Positions 20,592-39,210 of a stretch of DNA of 64,000 bases are shown here, in pieces; the stretch's first letter is position 1; every line of letters starts with the position of its first letter. Made by a program: the position numbers and the translations under genes. A model generated the notes under the pieces. It ran no database searches and had not been told where the DNA came from. It worked only from the letters and a program-made list of their open reading frames with translations. Origin of the DNA: Campylobacter concisus (GTDB taxonomy: Bacteria; Campylobacterota; Campylobacteria; Campylobacterales; Campylobacteraceae); assembly GCF_003048875.2 (NCBI RefSeq), contig NZ_CP049264.1:682001-746000 (forward strand), given 5' to 3'.

Positions 20592-20837
20592 TTGATCGAT
20601 CTTTTTCAGATCATCGGCTTTTTAGGGATGATTTGCATCGTGATGGGCTACTTTTTACTTCAGATCGGCCACCTAAATAGCCATGATCTAGCCTATCAGA
20701 TAATAAATTTAGCAGGTGCGGTGCTGCTTATAATCTCGCTTTTTGTGCACTTTAACCTCGGCTCATTTTTAATAGAGGTCTTTTGGATAATCATTACGAT
20801 ATATGGAATTTATAAAATTTACAAGGAGAGAGCGTGA
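20592..20837 (+). CDS. Small membrane protein, CBU_0592-like
   Basis: An 81-residue protein with three hydrophobic segments. The pattern IIGFLGMICIVMGYFLLQIG followed by YQIINLAGAVLLIISL is that of the CBU_0592-like family, whose function is unknown. TTG start with AAGGA six bases upstream. It overlaps the agmatine deiminase gene by 4 bases, so it belongs to the same operon. A TATGAT -10 candidate lies at 20550-20555. Confidence 0.7.
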   Translation: MIDLFQIIGFLGMICIVMGYFLLQIGHLNSHDLAYQIINLAGAVLLIISLFVHFNLGSFLIEVFWIIITIYGIYKIYKERA

Positions 20838-35135: not shown

Positions 35136-37076
35136 ATGTTTAAATTTCAAAGGTCAAAATTTAATAATTCAGTATTTATCCCATCGCTTATTGTCATATT
35201 TTTAATAGCGGCATTTGCAGCGATATTTCCAAATTTCTCAAATGAGTTTTTTAAGGGTATGCAAAACTACATCGCAGCCAAATTTGGCTGGTTTTATATC
35301 CTAGTCGTTGCCGTCATACTGCTAAGCGTCATCATTCTTGGCTTTAGTAAGCTTGGCGAGATCAAGCTTGGAGCTGATCACGTAAAGCCAGAGCACAAAA
35401 ATATCTCGTGGTTTTCTATGCTTTTTGCCGCTGGCATGGGCATAGGTCTAGTATTTTTTGGTGTGGCCGAGCCGCTCATGCACTATCTAAACCCACCAGT
35501 TGGCGACGCGCAAACTATCGCAGCGCAAAAGCTTGCGTTGAATATCACATTTTTTCACTGGGGCATGAGCGCATGGTCGGTTTATGCCATTGTGGCGCTA
35601 ATTCTAGCCTTTTTCTCGTATAGACACGGCTTGCCACTAACGCTTAGATCGGCGTTTTATCCGATCATCGGAGATAAAATTTACGGCAAGATAGGTAGTG
35701 CCATCGATACATTTGCCGTCGTAGCGACCCTTTTTGGCGTGGCGACATCGCTAGGATACGGCGTGCTTCAGGTAAATGCTGGCCTTACGCACGTTTTTGG
35801 CCTGCCAACCATGCACATCACGCTTCTAATAGTGCTTTGTTTTGCAGCTACCATCTCAGCGGCAAGTGGCGTGGATAAGGGCATTAAGATCTTATCAAAC
35901 GCAAACATCGCGCTAGCTATATGTTTTATGTTTTTGATACTATTTTTAGGCGATACGACGCAGCTTTTAAAGTCGTTTGTGCAAAACAGCGGCGACTACA
36001 TCTCTACGCTCATCTCAAACACCTTTAACCTCTACGCCTATGAGAGGCAAAACGAGAGCTGGCTTGGTGGCTGGACGCTGCTATACTGGGCTTGGTGGCT
36101 ATCTTGGTCGCCGTTTGTGGGGCTTTTTATAGCTAAAATTTCAAAGGGCAGAACGATCAGAGAATTTGTCATAGGCGTGCTTCTCGTGCCAACTGGCTTT
36201 ACTTTTGCTTGGATGAGCTTTTTTGGTAACTCGGCGATTGCGCTTGTTCAAAGTGGCTTTAGCGAGCTAGCGACCACGGTAAATTCCGACTCAGCCTCAG
36301 CACTTTTTATGTTTTTAGAAAAATTTAGCTTCTCAGGCGTGCTAAGCGTGATCGCAGTCTTTATGATCGTAATATTTTTCGTAACTTCCGCCGACTCTGC
36401 GGCGATCGTTATGAACATGCTTTGCTCAAACGGCAAGGATGATACACCAGTTTGGCAAAAGGTCTTTTGGGGCGTTACGGTGGGCGTCGTGGCGGCATTT
36501 TTGATGCTAGCTGGTGGTCTTGGCTCGCTTCAAGCACTTACGATCACGACAGCACTGCCATTTTCCATAGTGCTACTTGGCGCCATTTATGGGCTATTTA
36601 AGGCGTTACGTGTGGATCTAACCAAAAAAGAGACAAATAACTTTAGTAACATGCCTATTAGTGATCTTTCAAAGCCGTGGCAAGAACGTCTAAGTGCGAT
36701 CATCACGCTGCCAGGCAAGAAAGATGGCAAGAAATTTTTAAACGAGGTTGCACTAAAAGCTTTTAACGAGCTAAAAGAGGAATTTGCCAAAAACGGACTT
36801 GAAGCAAAGGTCACAAATGGCGAGAATTTTGTAAATTTAAACGTTGGTCTTGGCGATGAGATGGACTTTAGATATGGCGTTTATCTCACCAAAAGCCAGA
36901 GTCCAGACTACACCAGAGAGCTTGACGGCGATGATCTTTACTATAGAGCTGAGGTCTATCTAAAAGAGGGCGGTCAGGACTACGACGTGCTTGGATGGAG
37001 CGAGGCTACGCTGATAAACGACGTCATCGAACAATACCGCAAACACATGCAGTTTTTACACGTCGTTAGAGAGTAA
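35136..37076 (+). CDS. BCCT family betaine/choline/carnitine transporter
   Basis: A 646-residue sodium- or proton-coupled transporter with 12 helices and a long cytoplasmic tail of about 130 residues. The family motif region GWTLLYWAWWLSWSPFVGLFIAKISKGRTIREF is intact, with the aromatic residues that cage the trimethylammonium group, and helix 3 reads AAGMGIGLVFFGVAEPL. Such proteins import osmoprotectants; the long C-terminal tail fits the BetT/BetP type that senses osmolarity. The substrate is not fixed by sequence. Monocistronic with a good promoter. Confidence 0.93.
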   Translation: MFKFQRSKFNNSVFIPSLIVIFLIAAFAAIFPNFSNEFFKGMQNYIAAKFGWFYILVVAVILLSVIILGFSKLGEIKLGADHVKPEHKNISWFSMLFAAGMGIGLVFFGVAEPLMHYLNPPVGDAQTIAAQKLALNITFFHWGMSAWSVYAIVALILAFFSYRHGLPLTLRSAFYPIIGDKIYGKIGSAIDTFAVVATLFGVATSLGYGVLQVNAGLTHVFGLPTMHITLLIVLCFAATISAASGVDKGIKILSNANIALAICFMFLILFLGDTTQLLKSFVQNSGDYISTLISNTFNLYAYERQNESWLGGWTLLYWAWWLSWSPFVGLFIAKISKGRTIREFVIGVLLVPTGFTFAWMSFFGNSAIALVQSGFSELATTVNSDSASALFMFLEKFSFSGVLSVIAVFMIVIFFVTSADSAAIVMNMLCSNGKDDTPVWQKVFWGVTVGVVAAFLMLAGGLGSLQALTITTALPFSIVLLGAIYGLFKALRVDLTKKETNNFSNMPISDLSKPWQERLSAIITLPGKKDGKKFLNEVALKAFNELKEEFAKNGLEAKVTNGENFVNLNVGLGDEMDFRYGVYLTKSQSPDYTRELDGDDLYYRAEVYLKEGGQDYDVLGWSEATLINDVIEQYRKHMQFLHVVRE

Positions 37077-37115
37077 ATTTGAGTGAAATTTGCCTAGATT
37101 TTTAAAATTCTGGGC

Positions 37116-37397
37116 AAATTTACAAATTTAATCTAGTTATTTCATAAATTTTAAAATTCCATTCACTCGCTTTAGCAGTTTACTAAATTTAGGGCTCATA
37201 GCCATTCACAACTAAATTTAGAAGCGTGATATGCTCGCTCATAAATTTTAAAATTTGCTCAAATTTAACAAAACTGCATGCAGTGCGCCAGCACCTTCGC
37301 ATGCCCCTCTAACGTGCGAGGGGATTGAGGGATCTAAAGGGAGATAAGGGGACGGCTTCGTAATTCAAGTCCCCTTGTCTCCCTTTTGAATAAAAAG
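37116..37397. repeat. Structured tandem repeat, copy 1 (about 282 bp)
   Basis: First of two direct copies in the 760-base gap between two transporter genes. It contains, in order, GCATGC-AGTGC...GCAC...GCATGC nested arms (37276-37304), CCCCTC-N8-GAGGGG (37304-37323), and an 18-base stem (37336-37353 with 37369-37386, one G-T wobble) around a 15-base loop with GGCTTCGTAATT. No protein is encoded. Confidence 0.75.
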
Positions 37398-37695
37398 AAA
37401 TTTACAAATTTAATCAAGCTATTTTACAAATTTTAAAATCCCATTCACTCGTAAGAATTGACTACTAAAATTTGGCTTCGCTTACCACTTAGCTCAAATT
37501 TTAGATCCGAAATTACTCGTTCATGAAATTTTAAAATTTGCGTTACACTTGCCTGATGATAAAACGCATGCAGTGCGAAGCACTGAAGCATGCACCTCTA
37601 ACGTGCGAGGGGATTGTGGGATATAAAGGGAGATAATGGGACGGCTTCGTAATTAAAGTCCCCTTGTTTCCCTTTTGAATAAAAAGAAATTTACC
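37398..37695. repeat. Structured tandem repeat, copy 2 (about 298 bp)
   Basis: Second copy in the same orientation. The nested GCATGC/AGTGC hairpin is perfect here (37566-37593). The 18-base stem (37625-37642 with 37658-37675) keeps pairing with two wobbles and one mismatch. The loop is nearly unchanged. The flanking region about 200 bases upstream of the hairpins is more diverged, so the hairpin part is the conserved core. Both copies begin with AAATTTACAAATTTAAT. Confidence 0.75.
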
Positions 37696-37804
37696 CACAA
37701 AAATAAAAATAAATTCCGTCCATAAAAGTCCTAAAATTTAGCAAAAAAGCCAAATTTACACGCAAGCATCGCCTTTTGCTAGCAAAATTTAATCATTTTT
37801 TTTA

Positions 37805-37810
37805 TATAAT
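37805..37810 (+). promoter_or_regulatory. NSS symporter -10 element
   Basis: TATAAT after a T-rich run, 26 bases before the ATG. Confidence 0.55.
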
Positions 37811-37836
37811 CCAAGTTTTTCACAAAGGTAGATAAT

Positions 37837-39210
37837 ATGGATAGAAAATCGTGGAGTTCAAGACTTACATATATTTTAGCTGTTGCAGGGGCTACGGTCG
37901 GCTTTGGCGCGACGTGGCGTTTTCCTTACTTGGTCGGTCAAAACGGCGGTGGGGCCTATGTTTTGGTATTTTGCATAGCGATGATAGTCATTGGTATTCC
38001 TATGATTTTAGTTGAAAACGCCATTGGCAGGCGTCTAAAATGTAACGCCGTTGATGCATTTGGTGGCACAGTAAATGGCAAAAAGATCAGCAAAAAGTGG
38101 CAGATAGTGGGCTGGATGGGGCTTGTTGGCGCATTTGGCATCATGGCTTATTATATGGTTATCGGCGGCTGGGTCTTAAACTATATCGCTCAAATTTCAT
38201 TTGGCCTGCTTGATCTCTCGCAAATCGTGAGCTTTGAGCAAACGAGCGCATTTTATGAGCAAAATATCGTTAGCAACCCGCTAGCCATCAGCTTTGCGAC
38301 TCTTGTTTTTGTTCTGGTTAATTACGCTATCTTGGTGCAAGGCGCAGTTGGCGGCATCGAGCGCTCAGCAAAATATCTAATGCCACTTCTTTTTATATTG
38401 ATGCTCGTCATGATCGCTAAAAACATCACGCTTGGGGGTGCGATGGAGGGTGTGAAATTTTATTTAACGCCTGATTTTTCAAAGATAAATTTAAAGCTTT
38501 TTGTTGAGGTTTTGGGGCAGGTTTTCTTTGCGCTTTCGCTTGGATTTGGCGTGATGATAACGCTCTCAAGCTTTGTTAAAAAAGACGAAGGCTTAGTTAA
38601 AATTTCTATCATCACAGGCATCTTAAACACCGTCATAGCCGTGCTTGCTGGCTTTATGATATTTCCGTCGCTCTTTAGCTACGGCGTCTCACCAGATAGT
38701 GGTCCTAGCCTAGTTTTCAAGTCGCTTCCGATCGTCTTTTCGCACATGCCTTTTGGCGGATTTTTCGCGGTTGCGTTTTTTGCGCTTCTTATGATCGCTG
38801 CGCTTACGACGTCGCTGCCGATATATGAAGTGATCATTACCACACTGCAAGAGAAATTTAAGATAAAACGCAAAAAAGCGATATTTTTAGTGCTTAGCGT
38901 CATTTTCGTGCTTGGGAATTTGCCCTCACTTATGGCTACAAATTTACTAAGTCATGTGAGCATTTTTGGTAAAAATATCTTTGACGCATACGACGCGATA
39001 AGTGCAACGATATTTTTCGTGCTGACCTCGCTTGGATGTGCGATATTTGTCGGCTGGGTACTAAAAGATGAAGCGAAAAAAGAGATCTTGCAAGGCAGCG
39101 AAAAATACGCAAAGCTTATAAATATTTGGTTTTTCTATATCAAATTTATCGTGCCTTTTGTCATTTTGGTGCTATTTATCAGTAGTTTTTACGACAACTT
39201 TTTGAAGTGA
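37837..39210 (+). CDS. Neurotransmitter:sodium symporter (NSS/SNF) family transporter
   Basis: A 457-residue LeuT-fold transporter with 11-12 helices. The helix-1 signature AGATVGFGATWRFPYLVGQNGGGAYVLVF carries the sodium and substrate site. Bacterial members import amino acids such as tyrosine, tryptophan or leucine; the substrate is unknown. It starts an apparently long operon with gaps of 3-11 bases that runs to the methyltransferase and beyond. It lies directly after the tandem structured repeats. Confidence 0.93.
   Translation: MDRKSWSSRLTYILAVAGATVGFGATWRFPYLVGQNGGGAYVLVFCIAMIVIGIPMILVENAIGRRLKCNAVDAFGGTVNGKKISKKWQIVGWMGLVGAFGIMAYYMVIGGWVLNYIAQISFGLLDLSQIVSFEQTSAFYEQNIVSNPLAISFATLVFVLVNYAILVQGAVGGIERSAKYLMPLLFILMLVMIAKNITLGGAMEGVKFYLTPDFSKINLKLFVEVLGQVFFALSLGFGVMITLSSFVKKDEGLVKISIITGILNTVIAVLAGFMIFPSLFSYGVSPDSGPSLVFKSLPIVFSHMPFGGFFAVAFFALLMIAALTTSLPIYEVIITTLQEKFKIKRKKAIFLVLSVIFVLGNLPSLMATNLLSHVSIFGKNIFDAYDAISATIFFVLTSLGCAIFVGWVLKDEAKKEILQGSEKYAKLINIWFFYIKFIVPFVILVLFISSFYDNFLK

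What the first reader, a model, noticed from the sequence alone, without database searches (positions are those of the whole stretch)
37116..37695. Tandem, strongly structured 285-bp element between two transporter genes
Two direct copies contain the same three hairpins in order. The longest stem keeps its pairing in the second copy mostly through G-T wobbles, and the loop is nearly identical while the flanks differ. That pattern fits selection on RNA or DNA structure. It could be a non-autonomous element, a structured RNA, or a protein-binding array. It is not a CRISPR.
Basis: seen in the sequence. Interest (0 to 1): 0.65.

Follow-up and report, generated by a model that had tools for sequence, protein, structure and literature searches.

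The report
Folding mosaic repeats in Campylobacter genomes
The double hairpin block between two transporter genes is one of about 20 arrays, in this Campylobacter concisus-group genome, of an apparently undescribed family of small dispersed repeats whose folded shape, rather than its sequence, is conserved across Campylobacter, Helicobacter-family and related bacteria; it behaves like a mobile mosaic element whose carrier enzyme is unknown.

Summary
Window 37145-37684 holds two units of two modules: A (~115 bp, nested palindrome) and B (~125 nt, three hairpins). A covariance model of B hits 39 of 48 genomes of the genus (27 hits here), and a broader model finds it in 8 genera of Campylobacterales, including Helicobacteraceae, with no Rfam match. 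Helix sequences are swapped wholesale while pairing, a 3-nt bulge and loop motifs persist: B's long stem is 95% paired against 68% when arms are shuffled. Arrays sit at the same loci in close relatives but differ in module number. In three Helicobacteraceae genomes a lone B lies inside an hsdS reading frame. No Y1 transposase was found in the genus members tested, no correlated reverse transcriptase, and no hit in phage, plasmid or viral-contig searches. Arrays avoid divergent gaps and, in the concisus group, are co-oriented with replication (17 of 19 here). Best reading: a non-autonomous, BOX/BIME-like mosaic repeat that depends on one strand folding as a single strand (RNA or lagging-template DNA). 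Family and fold are well supported; the mobilising mechanism is inferred. It is a new family of a known kind.

The parts
37086..37121 (+). Short hairpin just after the BCCT stop codon (AAATTTGCCTAGA..TTCTGGGCAAATTT), outside the repeat; conserved in relatives that lack a full array
37145..37259 (+). Module A, first copy (A2 type): outer AAATTTTAAAATT stem, inner 10-bp hairpin at 37183-37221
37269..37395 (+). Module B, first copy (whole)
37276..37304 (+). B hairpin H1 (GCATGC outer stem, inner stem, unpaired bases on the 3' side)
37304..37323 (+). B hairpin H2 with conserved AACGTGC loop
37333..37389 (+). B hairpin H3: purine-rich 5' arm, pyrimidine-rich 3' arm, conserved loop CTTCGTAATTCAAG
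37425..37542 (+). Module A, second copy (A1 type); inner hairpin at 37465-37504
37559..37684 (+). Module B, second copy (H1 37566-37593, H2 37595-37612, H3 37622-37678)
35136..37076 (+). Flanking BCCT-family transporter gene (array lies downstream of its stop codon, same strand); not part of the element
37837..39210 (+). Flanking SNF-family (sodium:neurotransmitter symporter) gene; not part of the element

Best explanation
The feature is a two-unit array (A-B-A-B) of a composite, non-autonomous interspersed repeat. Module B is an old three-hairpin core shared across Campylobacterales. Module A is a lineage-specific palindromic companion; other lineages put unrelated palindromes beside B, or none. 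Shown: dispersed multi-copy family, conservation of fold by compensatory change, solo B copies inside genes and intergenic gaps, array length differing between orthologous loci, avoidance of divergent gaps, and co-orientation with replication in the concisus group. Inferred: the + strand works by folding as a single strand, either as RNA or as lagging-strand template DNA exposed at the fork; an unidentified trans-acting enzyme moves B occasionally; arrays then grow, shrink and homogenise by recombination between copies. Location near gene ends is probably what the host tolerates; a domesticated effect on mRNA ends is possible but not required.
For: Copies: 22 matches to the B region in this genome and 14 of 41 genomes hit, all in the genus; model R1 hits 39 of 48 genus genomes, 27 here; model R2 hits 8 genera including Helicobacteraceae. 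Fold: B H3 stems 95.2% paired against 68.2% shuffled, maximum 73.0%; B alignment 19 double-change cells against 4.9 shuffled, 0 of 500; A inner helix 98.7% paired with 6 of 10 pairs doubly changed, covariation 0.179 against 0.071 for the whole structure; H1 keeps a 3-nt 3' bulge with unrelated stem sequences. Strand: symmetric scoring gives G.U 126 against A.C 32 on the + strand, 51 against 21 in distinct stems. Mobility: lone B in frame in hsdS genes of three Helicobacteraceae genomes, homologues without it, an empty counterpart in this window for the G004 copy, an M15-peptidase neighbour consistent with a prophage in G006. Array turnover: all 19 loci here have an orthologous array in at least one of G011, G016, G012, mostly with differing module strings. 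Placement: divergent gaps 0 of 19 against 33 of 141 baseline (p 0.014), convergent 10 of 19 against 25 of 141 (p 0.0017). Replication: 17 of 19 co-oriented (p 0.0007), 9 of 10 in convergent gaps.
Against: No mobilising gene was found. No target duplication was seen in two empty-site comparisons, and exact ends were not fixed. Orthologous arrays in close relatives mean recent transposition was not observed directly. The replication bias is absent in G005 (8 of 17) and, after correcting for the dnaA position (my arithmetic), in G168 (7 of 14) and G252 (3 of 13), so it is not a property of B as such. The concisus bias is partly explained by genes being co-oriented with replication (p 0.011 against a 0.63 baseline).
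Confidence: 0.6

Rival explanations
1. A structured noncoding RNA or 3' UTR element with a host function (mRNA 3'-end protection, termination or an RNA sponge), spread by recombination and kept by selection on expression.
For: Fold conserved with G.U tolerance on one strand. In this genome 7 of 9 codirectional arrays are sense to the upstream gene and no array lies in a divergent gap. Some showae-like copies are followed by a hairpin and T-run that look like an intrinsic terminator.
Against: In other genera sense and antisense are equal, 13 to 13. H3 of the b type has no U-run, and no sense-strand terminator is predicted in the array. No Rfam match. Copies occur in frame inside hsdS. Copy number varies from 0 to 31 hits between species of the genus.
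Confidence: 0.2
2. A DNA-level protein-binding array (for gyrase, a nucleoid protein or a replication/recombination factor), analogous to BIME-2 gyrase sites, working as double-stranded or cruciform DNA.
For: Modular arrays, gene-end location, co-orientation with replication in the concisus group.
Against: G.U far exceeds A.C on one strand, unexpected for a strand-symmetric cruciform. Stem sequences are swapped wholesale, so little double-stranded recognition sequence survives apart from loops. The replication bias is missing in G005, G168 and G252 (with dnaA positions).
Confidence: 0.13
3. REP/BIME elements moved by a RAYT (Y1) transposase.
For: Palindromic, intergenic, mosaic, multi-copy.
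Against: PF01797 absent from this genome and all 15 other genus genomes tested, while control genomes ring as they should.
Confidence: 0.02
4. A chance duplication plus AT-rich palindromes or ordinary terminators.
For: AAATTT words are common in this genome.
Against: Dispersed genus-wide copies with E-values to 1e-42 for other copies, z = -5.7 fold, covariation above all shuffles.
Confidence: 0.01

Closest known systems
BOX elements of Streptococcus pneumoniae (PMC3049150)
   Same: Composite modules in variable number, predicted RNA folding, small interspersed repeats, length varying between strains at one locus, wider families in related species.
   Different: Here the core shows extensive compensatory change across two bacterial families, and the neighbouring module is replaced by unrelated palindromes between lineages. 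Sequences were not compared directly.
BIME/REP (REPIN) with RAYT (general knowledge)
   Same: Mosaic palindromic repeats in non-divergent gaps.
   Different: No Y1 transposase in the genus members tested; units are larger and B has three distinct hairpins.
Rickettsia palindromic elements (general knowledge)
   Same: Palindromic repeat inserted in frame inside protein genes (here hsdS).
   Different: Mostly intergenic here; different host order; sequences not compared.
IS200/IS605-type single-strand transposition (general knowledge)
   Same: Strand-specific hairpins and a lagging-strand bias would be expected.
   Different: No HUH/Y1 transposase found; the bias is present in only some lineages.
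dif/XerH sites of epsilonproteobacteria (PMC2731167)
   Same: AT-rich palindrome in Campylobacter.
   Different: Published difH sequences do not match either module by eye, and difH is a single site near the terminus.

Membership tests
REP/BIME-RAYT | Y1 (RAYT) transposase in the genome or lineage | tested here: not met
REP/BIME-RAYT | Multi-copy intergenic palindromes in mosaic arrays | tested here: met
MITE | Terminal inverted repeats matching a resident IS | not tested
   no IS comparison was run; only the Y1 family was excluded
MITE | Target-site duplication | tested here: inconclusive
   none visible in two empty-site alignments, but the flanks are diverged
BOX-type composite repeat | Modules in variable number between orthologous loci | tested here: met
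BOX-type composite repeat | Sequence homology to boxA/B/C | not tested
   pneumococcal sequences were not compared directly
Known Rfam structured RNA family | Match at a family's gathering score | tested here: not met
   permissive search
Structured noncoding RNA (general) | Covariation-supported helices | tested here: met
Structured noncoding RNA (general) | Transcription | not testable with these tools
   no RNA-seq held
Reverse-transcriptase-linked element (retron, group II) | RT gene tracks the copies | tested here: not met
   G011 has the most hits (31) and no RVT_1 match
CRISPR | Short identical repeats with regular unique spacers | tested here: not met
   two 91% units of ~285 bp with modular structure

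The most novel reading that the evidence does not exclude
B is an ancient selfish structured nucleic acid that moves as a folded single strand (lagging-template DNA or RNA) using an as yet unrecognised host or mobile enzyme, recruiting different palindromic partners in different lineages.
Probability: 0.25. Interest if true: 0.8.

Novelty: new variant of a known kind. Interest (0 to 1): 0.6.

Why it matters
It gives Campylobacter and Helicobacter relatives their own family of small structured repeats, which systematic stem-loop clustering of C. jejuni and H. pylori did not detect (PMC2267715 reports no clusters for either). It shows a repeat core conserved in fold across two bacterial families while its companion module is exchanged. 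The arrays coincide with at least one chromosomal rearrangement, they vary between strains and so could serve as typing markers, and the in-frame hsdS insertions add sequence to the linker of a restriction specificity subunit. The strand bias makes a concrete prediction about how such repeats fold or move.

Tried and rejected
RAYT/Y1 transposase and reverse transcriptase as mobilisers: no correlation. Rfam, gathering and permissive thresholds: nothing but chance matches and a tRNA in a flank. difH/Xer site: published sequence differs. Plasmid, phage and viral collections: no match. rRNA or tRNA next to the exceptional antisense arrays: not found. Strict sense orientation to genes was my early idea; it failed in other genera, 13 to 13. 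Intrinsic terminator as the general role: no sense-strand terminator predicted in the array. Literature searches found no description of the family.

Full report
WHAT IS THERE. The window is from a genome of the Campylobacter concisus group: the closest named matches to the repeat are C. concisus strains. Between a BCCT transporter gene (35136-37076) and an SNF-family symporter gene (37837-39210) lie two ~285-bp units. Each unit is module A (37145-37259 and 37425-37542) followed by module B (37269-37395 and 37559-37684). A is a nested palindrome. B has three hairpins: H1, H2 and the long H3 with loop CTTCGTAATTCAAG. The unit folds far better than shuffles (z = -5.7).

A LARGE FAMILY. The B region matches 22 places in this genome and occurs in 14 of 41 genomes, all in the genus. 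A covariance model from 34 copies finds B in 39 of 48 genus genomes, with 27 hits here and up to 31 elsewhere. A second model from 28 diverse copies searched over 249 genomes of the order hits 21 genomes in 8 genera, including Helicobacteraceae; 228 genomes have none, which speaks for its specificity. Arrays are strings of A and B such as ABA, AABA or BABABAA. In showae-like genomes B sits inside a longer element with a different large 5' hairpin and a long-range stem. In a Campylobacteraceae MAG it is flanked by unrelated GTCATTGCGAG-type palindromes. In low-copy species B stands alone.

STRUCTURE IS WHAT IS CONSERVED. H3 occurs as many different stem sequences; 53 distinct stems are 95.2% paired, against 68.2% (maximum 73.0%) when 3' arms are exchanged. 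H1 keeps an outer stem, a 3-nt bulge on the 3' side and an inner stem, with unrelated sequences in concisus (GCATGC..) and showae-like (GCGAC..) genomes. Formal counts give 19 double-change cells against 4.9 in shuffles for B and 38 against 10.8 for A, whose inner helix has 6 of 10 pairs doubly changed. Related sequences can inflate such shuffle tests, but wholesale helix swaps between lineages and slid-register controls argue against that as the explanation. G.U pairs far outnumber A.C mismatches on the + strand under symmetric scoring (126 to 32; distinct stems 88 to 29; 51 to 21 by another alignment). That points to the + strand folding as a single strand. A few old G.U fixations contribute strongly, and G.T is also the better tolerated mismatch in single-stranded DNA (general knowledge), so RNA and DNA are not separated.

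MOBILITY AND TURNOVER. All 19 array loci of this genome have an array at the orthologous place in at least one of three relatives, usually with a different module string. At the locus itself, BCCT and SNF are neighbours in this genome, G016 and G011 among those examined. In G012, G001, G008, G002 and G014 the two genes are far apart or on different contigs, and BCCT is followed by a truncated A, so the array coincides with a rearrangement. Elsewhere B behaves as an insertion. In three Helicobacteraceae genomes it lies in frame within hsdS genes, whose homologues lack it. The G004 copy has an empty counterpart in this very window at 20788-20837. The G006 copy is beside an M15 peptidase gene in what looks like a phage lysis region. 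No target duplication was visible and no mobilising gene was found: no Y1 transposase in the 16 genus genomes tested and no tracking reverse transcriptase.

PLACEMENT. In this genome arrays avoid divergent gaps (0 of 19; baseline 33 of 141, p 0.014) and are enriched in convergent gaps (10 of 19; baseline 25 of 141, p 0.0017). dnaA is at the start of the contig and GC skew changes sign near 1.0 Mb. Relative to that, 17 of 19 arrays are co-oriented with replication (p 0.0007; p 0.011 against a gene baseline of about 0.63), including 9 of 10 in convergent gaps, where gene direction cannot explain it. G011 has 16 of 19, G016 10 of 10, G012 9 of 11, G047 9 of 9 and G020 12 of 15; the concisus genomes share loci with one another and are not independent. 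G005 shows none (8 of 17). For G168 and G252 the figures printed assume an origin at base 1, which one search shows is wrong; recomputed by hand they are 7 of 14 and 3 of 13. Sense orientation to the upstream gene is suggestive in this genome (7 to 2) but absent in other genera (13 to 13).

INTERPRETATION. The evidence best fits a composite non-autonomous interspersed repeat. The closest described analogue is the pneumococcal BOX element (PMC3049150), with BIMEs and Rickettsia palindromic elements as partial parallels. It is not a member of REP/RAYT, of any Rfam family, or of CRISPR by the tests run. The fold-dependence and family status are strongly supported. Movement by an unidentified enzyme, and folding as lagging-template DNA rather than RNA, are inference.

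LIMITS. Gene calls used a simple ORF procedure; some flanks may be wrong. Genome handles in the genome tool are unnamed, so 'showae-like' is a working label from memory and not a tool result. Exact element ends were not established. Literature searches cover open-licence papers only.

Noticed in passing
L232 787-2127; L233 1294-2991; L236 616-2478: hsdS (Methylase_S) genes of Helicobacteraceae carry B, and in L236 also a GTCATTCTGAG-type repeat, as in-frame peptide inserts in the linker region, so this linker seems to collect repeats.
   Followed up: partly
L193, L195, L201, L205, L206 (MAG JAAYPR01): Palindromes of the type GATTGCCACGATTTACTTCGTAAATCTCGCAATGAC flank B; the GTCATTGCGAG word is, from memory, common in many bacteria and I found no paper on it.
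   Followed up: partly
L193, L195, L205: Some MAG copies of B carry an extra hairpin (CAAAATGTGCC..CGGCACTTTTG) between H2 and H3; some concisus copies carry a different ~30-nt insert in the H3 loop.
   Followed up: no
window 37070-37840 with L043-L048: BCCT/SNF adjacency is a rearrangement found in G000, G011 and G016; in G011 the junction falls in a TTTTAAAATTT stretch shared by module A and a truncated neighbour gene.
   Followed up: partly
L153, L157, L158, L163: Several showae-like copies are followed by AACAACC..GGTTGTTTTTT, a terminator-like hairpin and T-run.
   Followed up: no
L150 2074-2424: In G022 a B copy sits antisense between two adjacent tryptophan-pathway-like genes (TrpE-like and TrpG-like by eye).
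   Followed up: no
G000:C1:1628793-1629224: A second weak Bac_DnaA match with an internal stop in this genome, also seen in several relatives.
   Followed up: no
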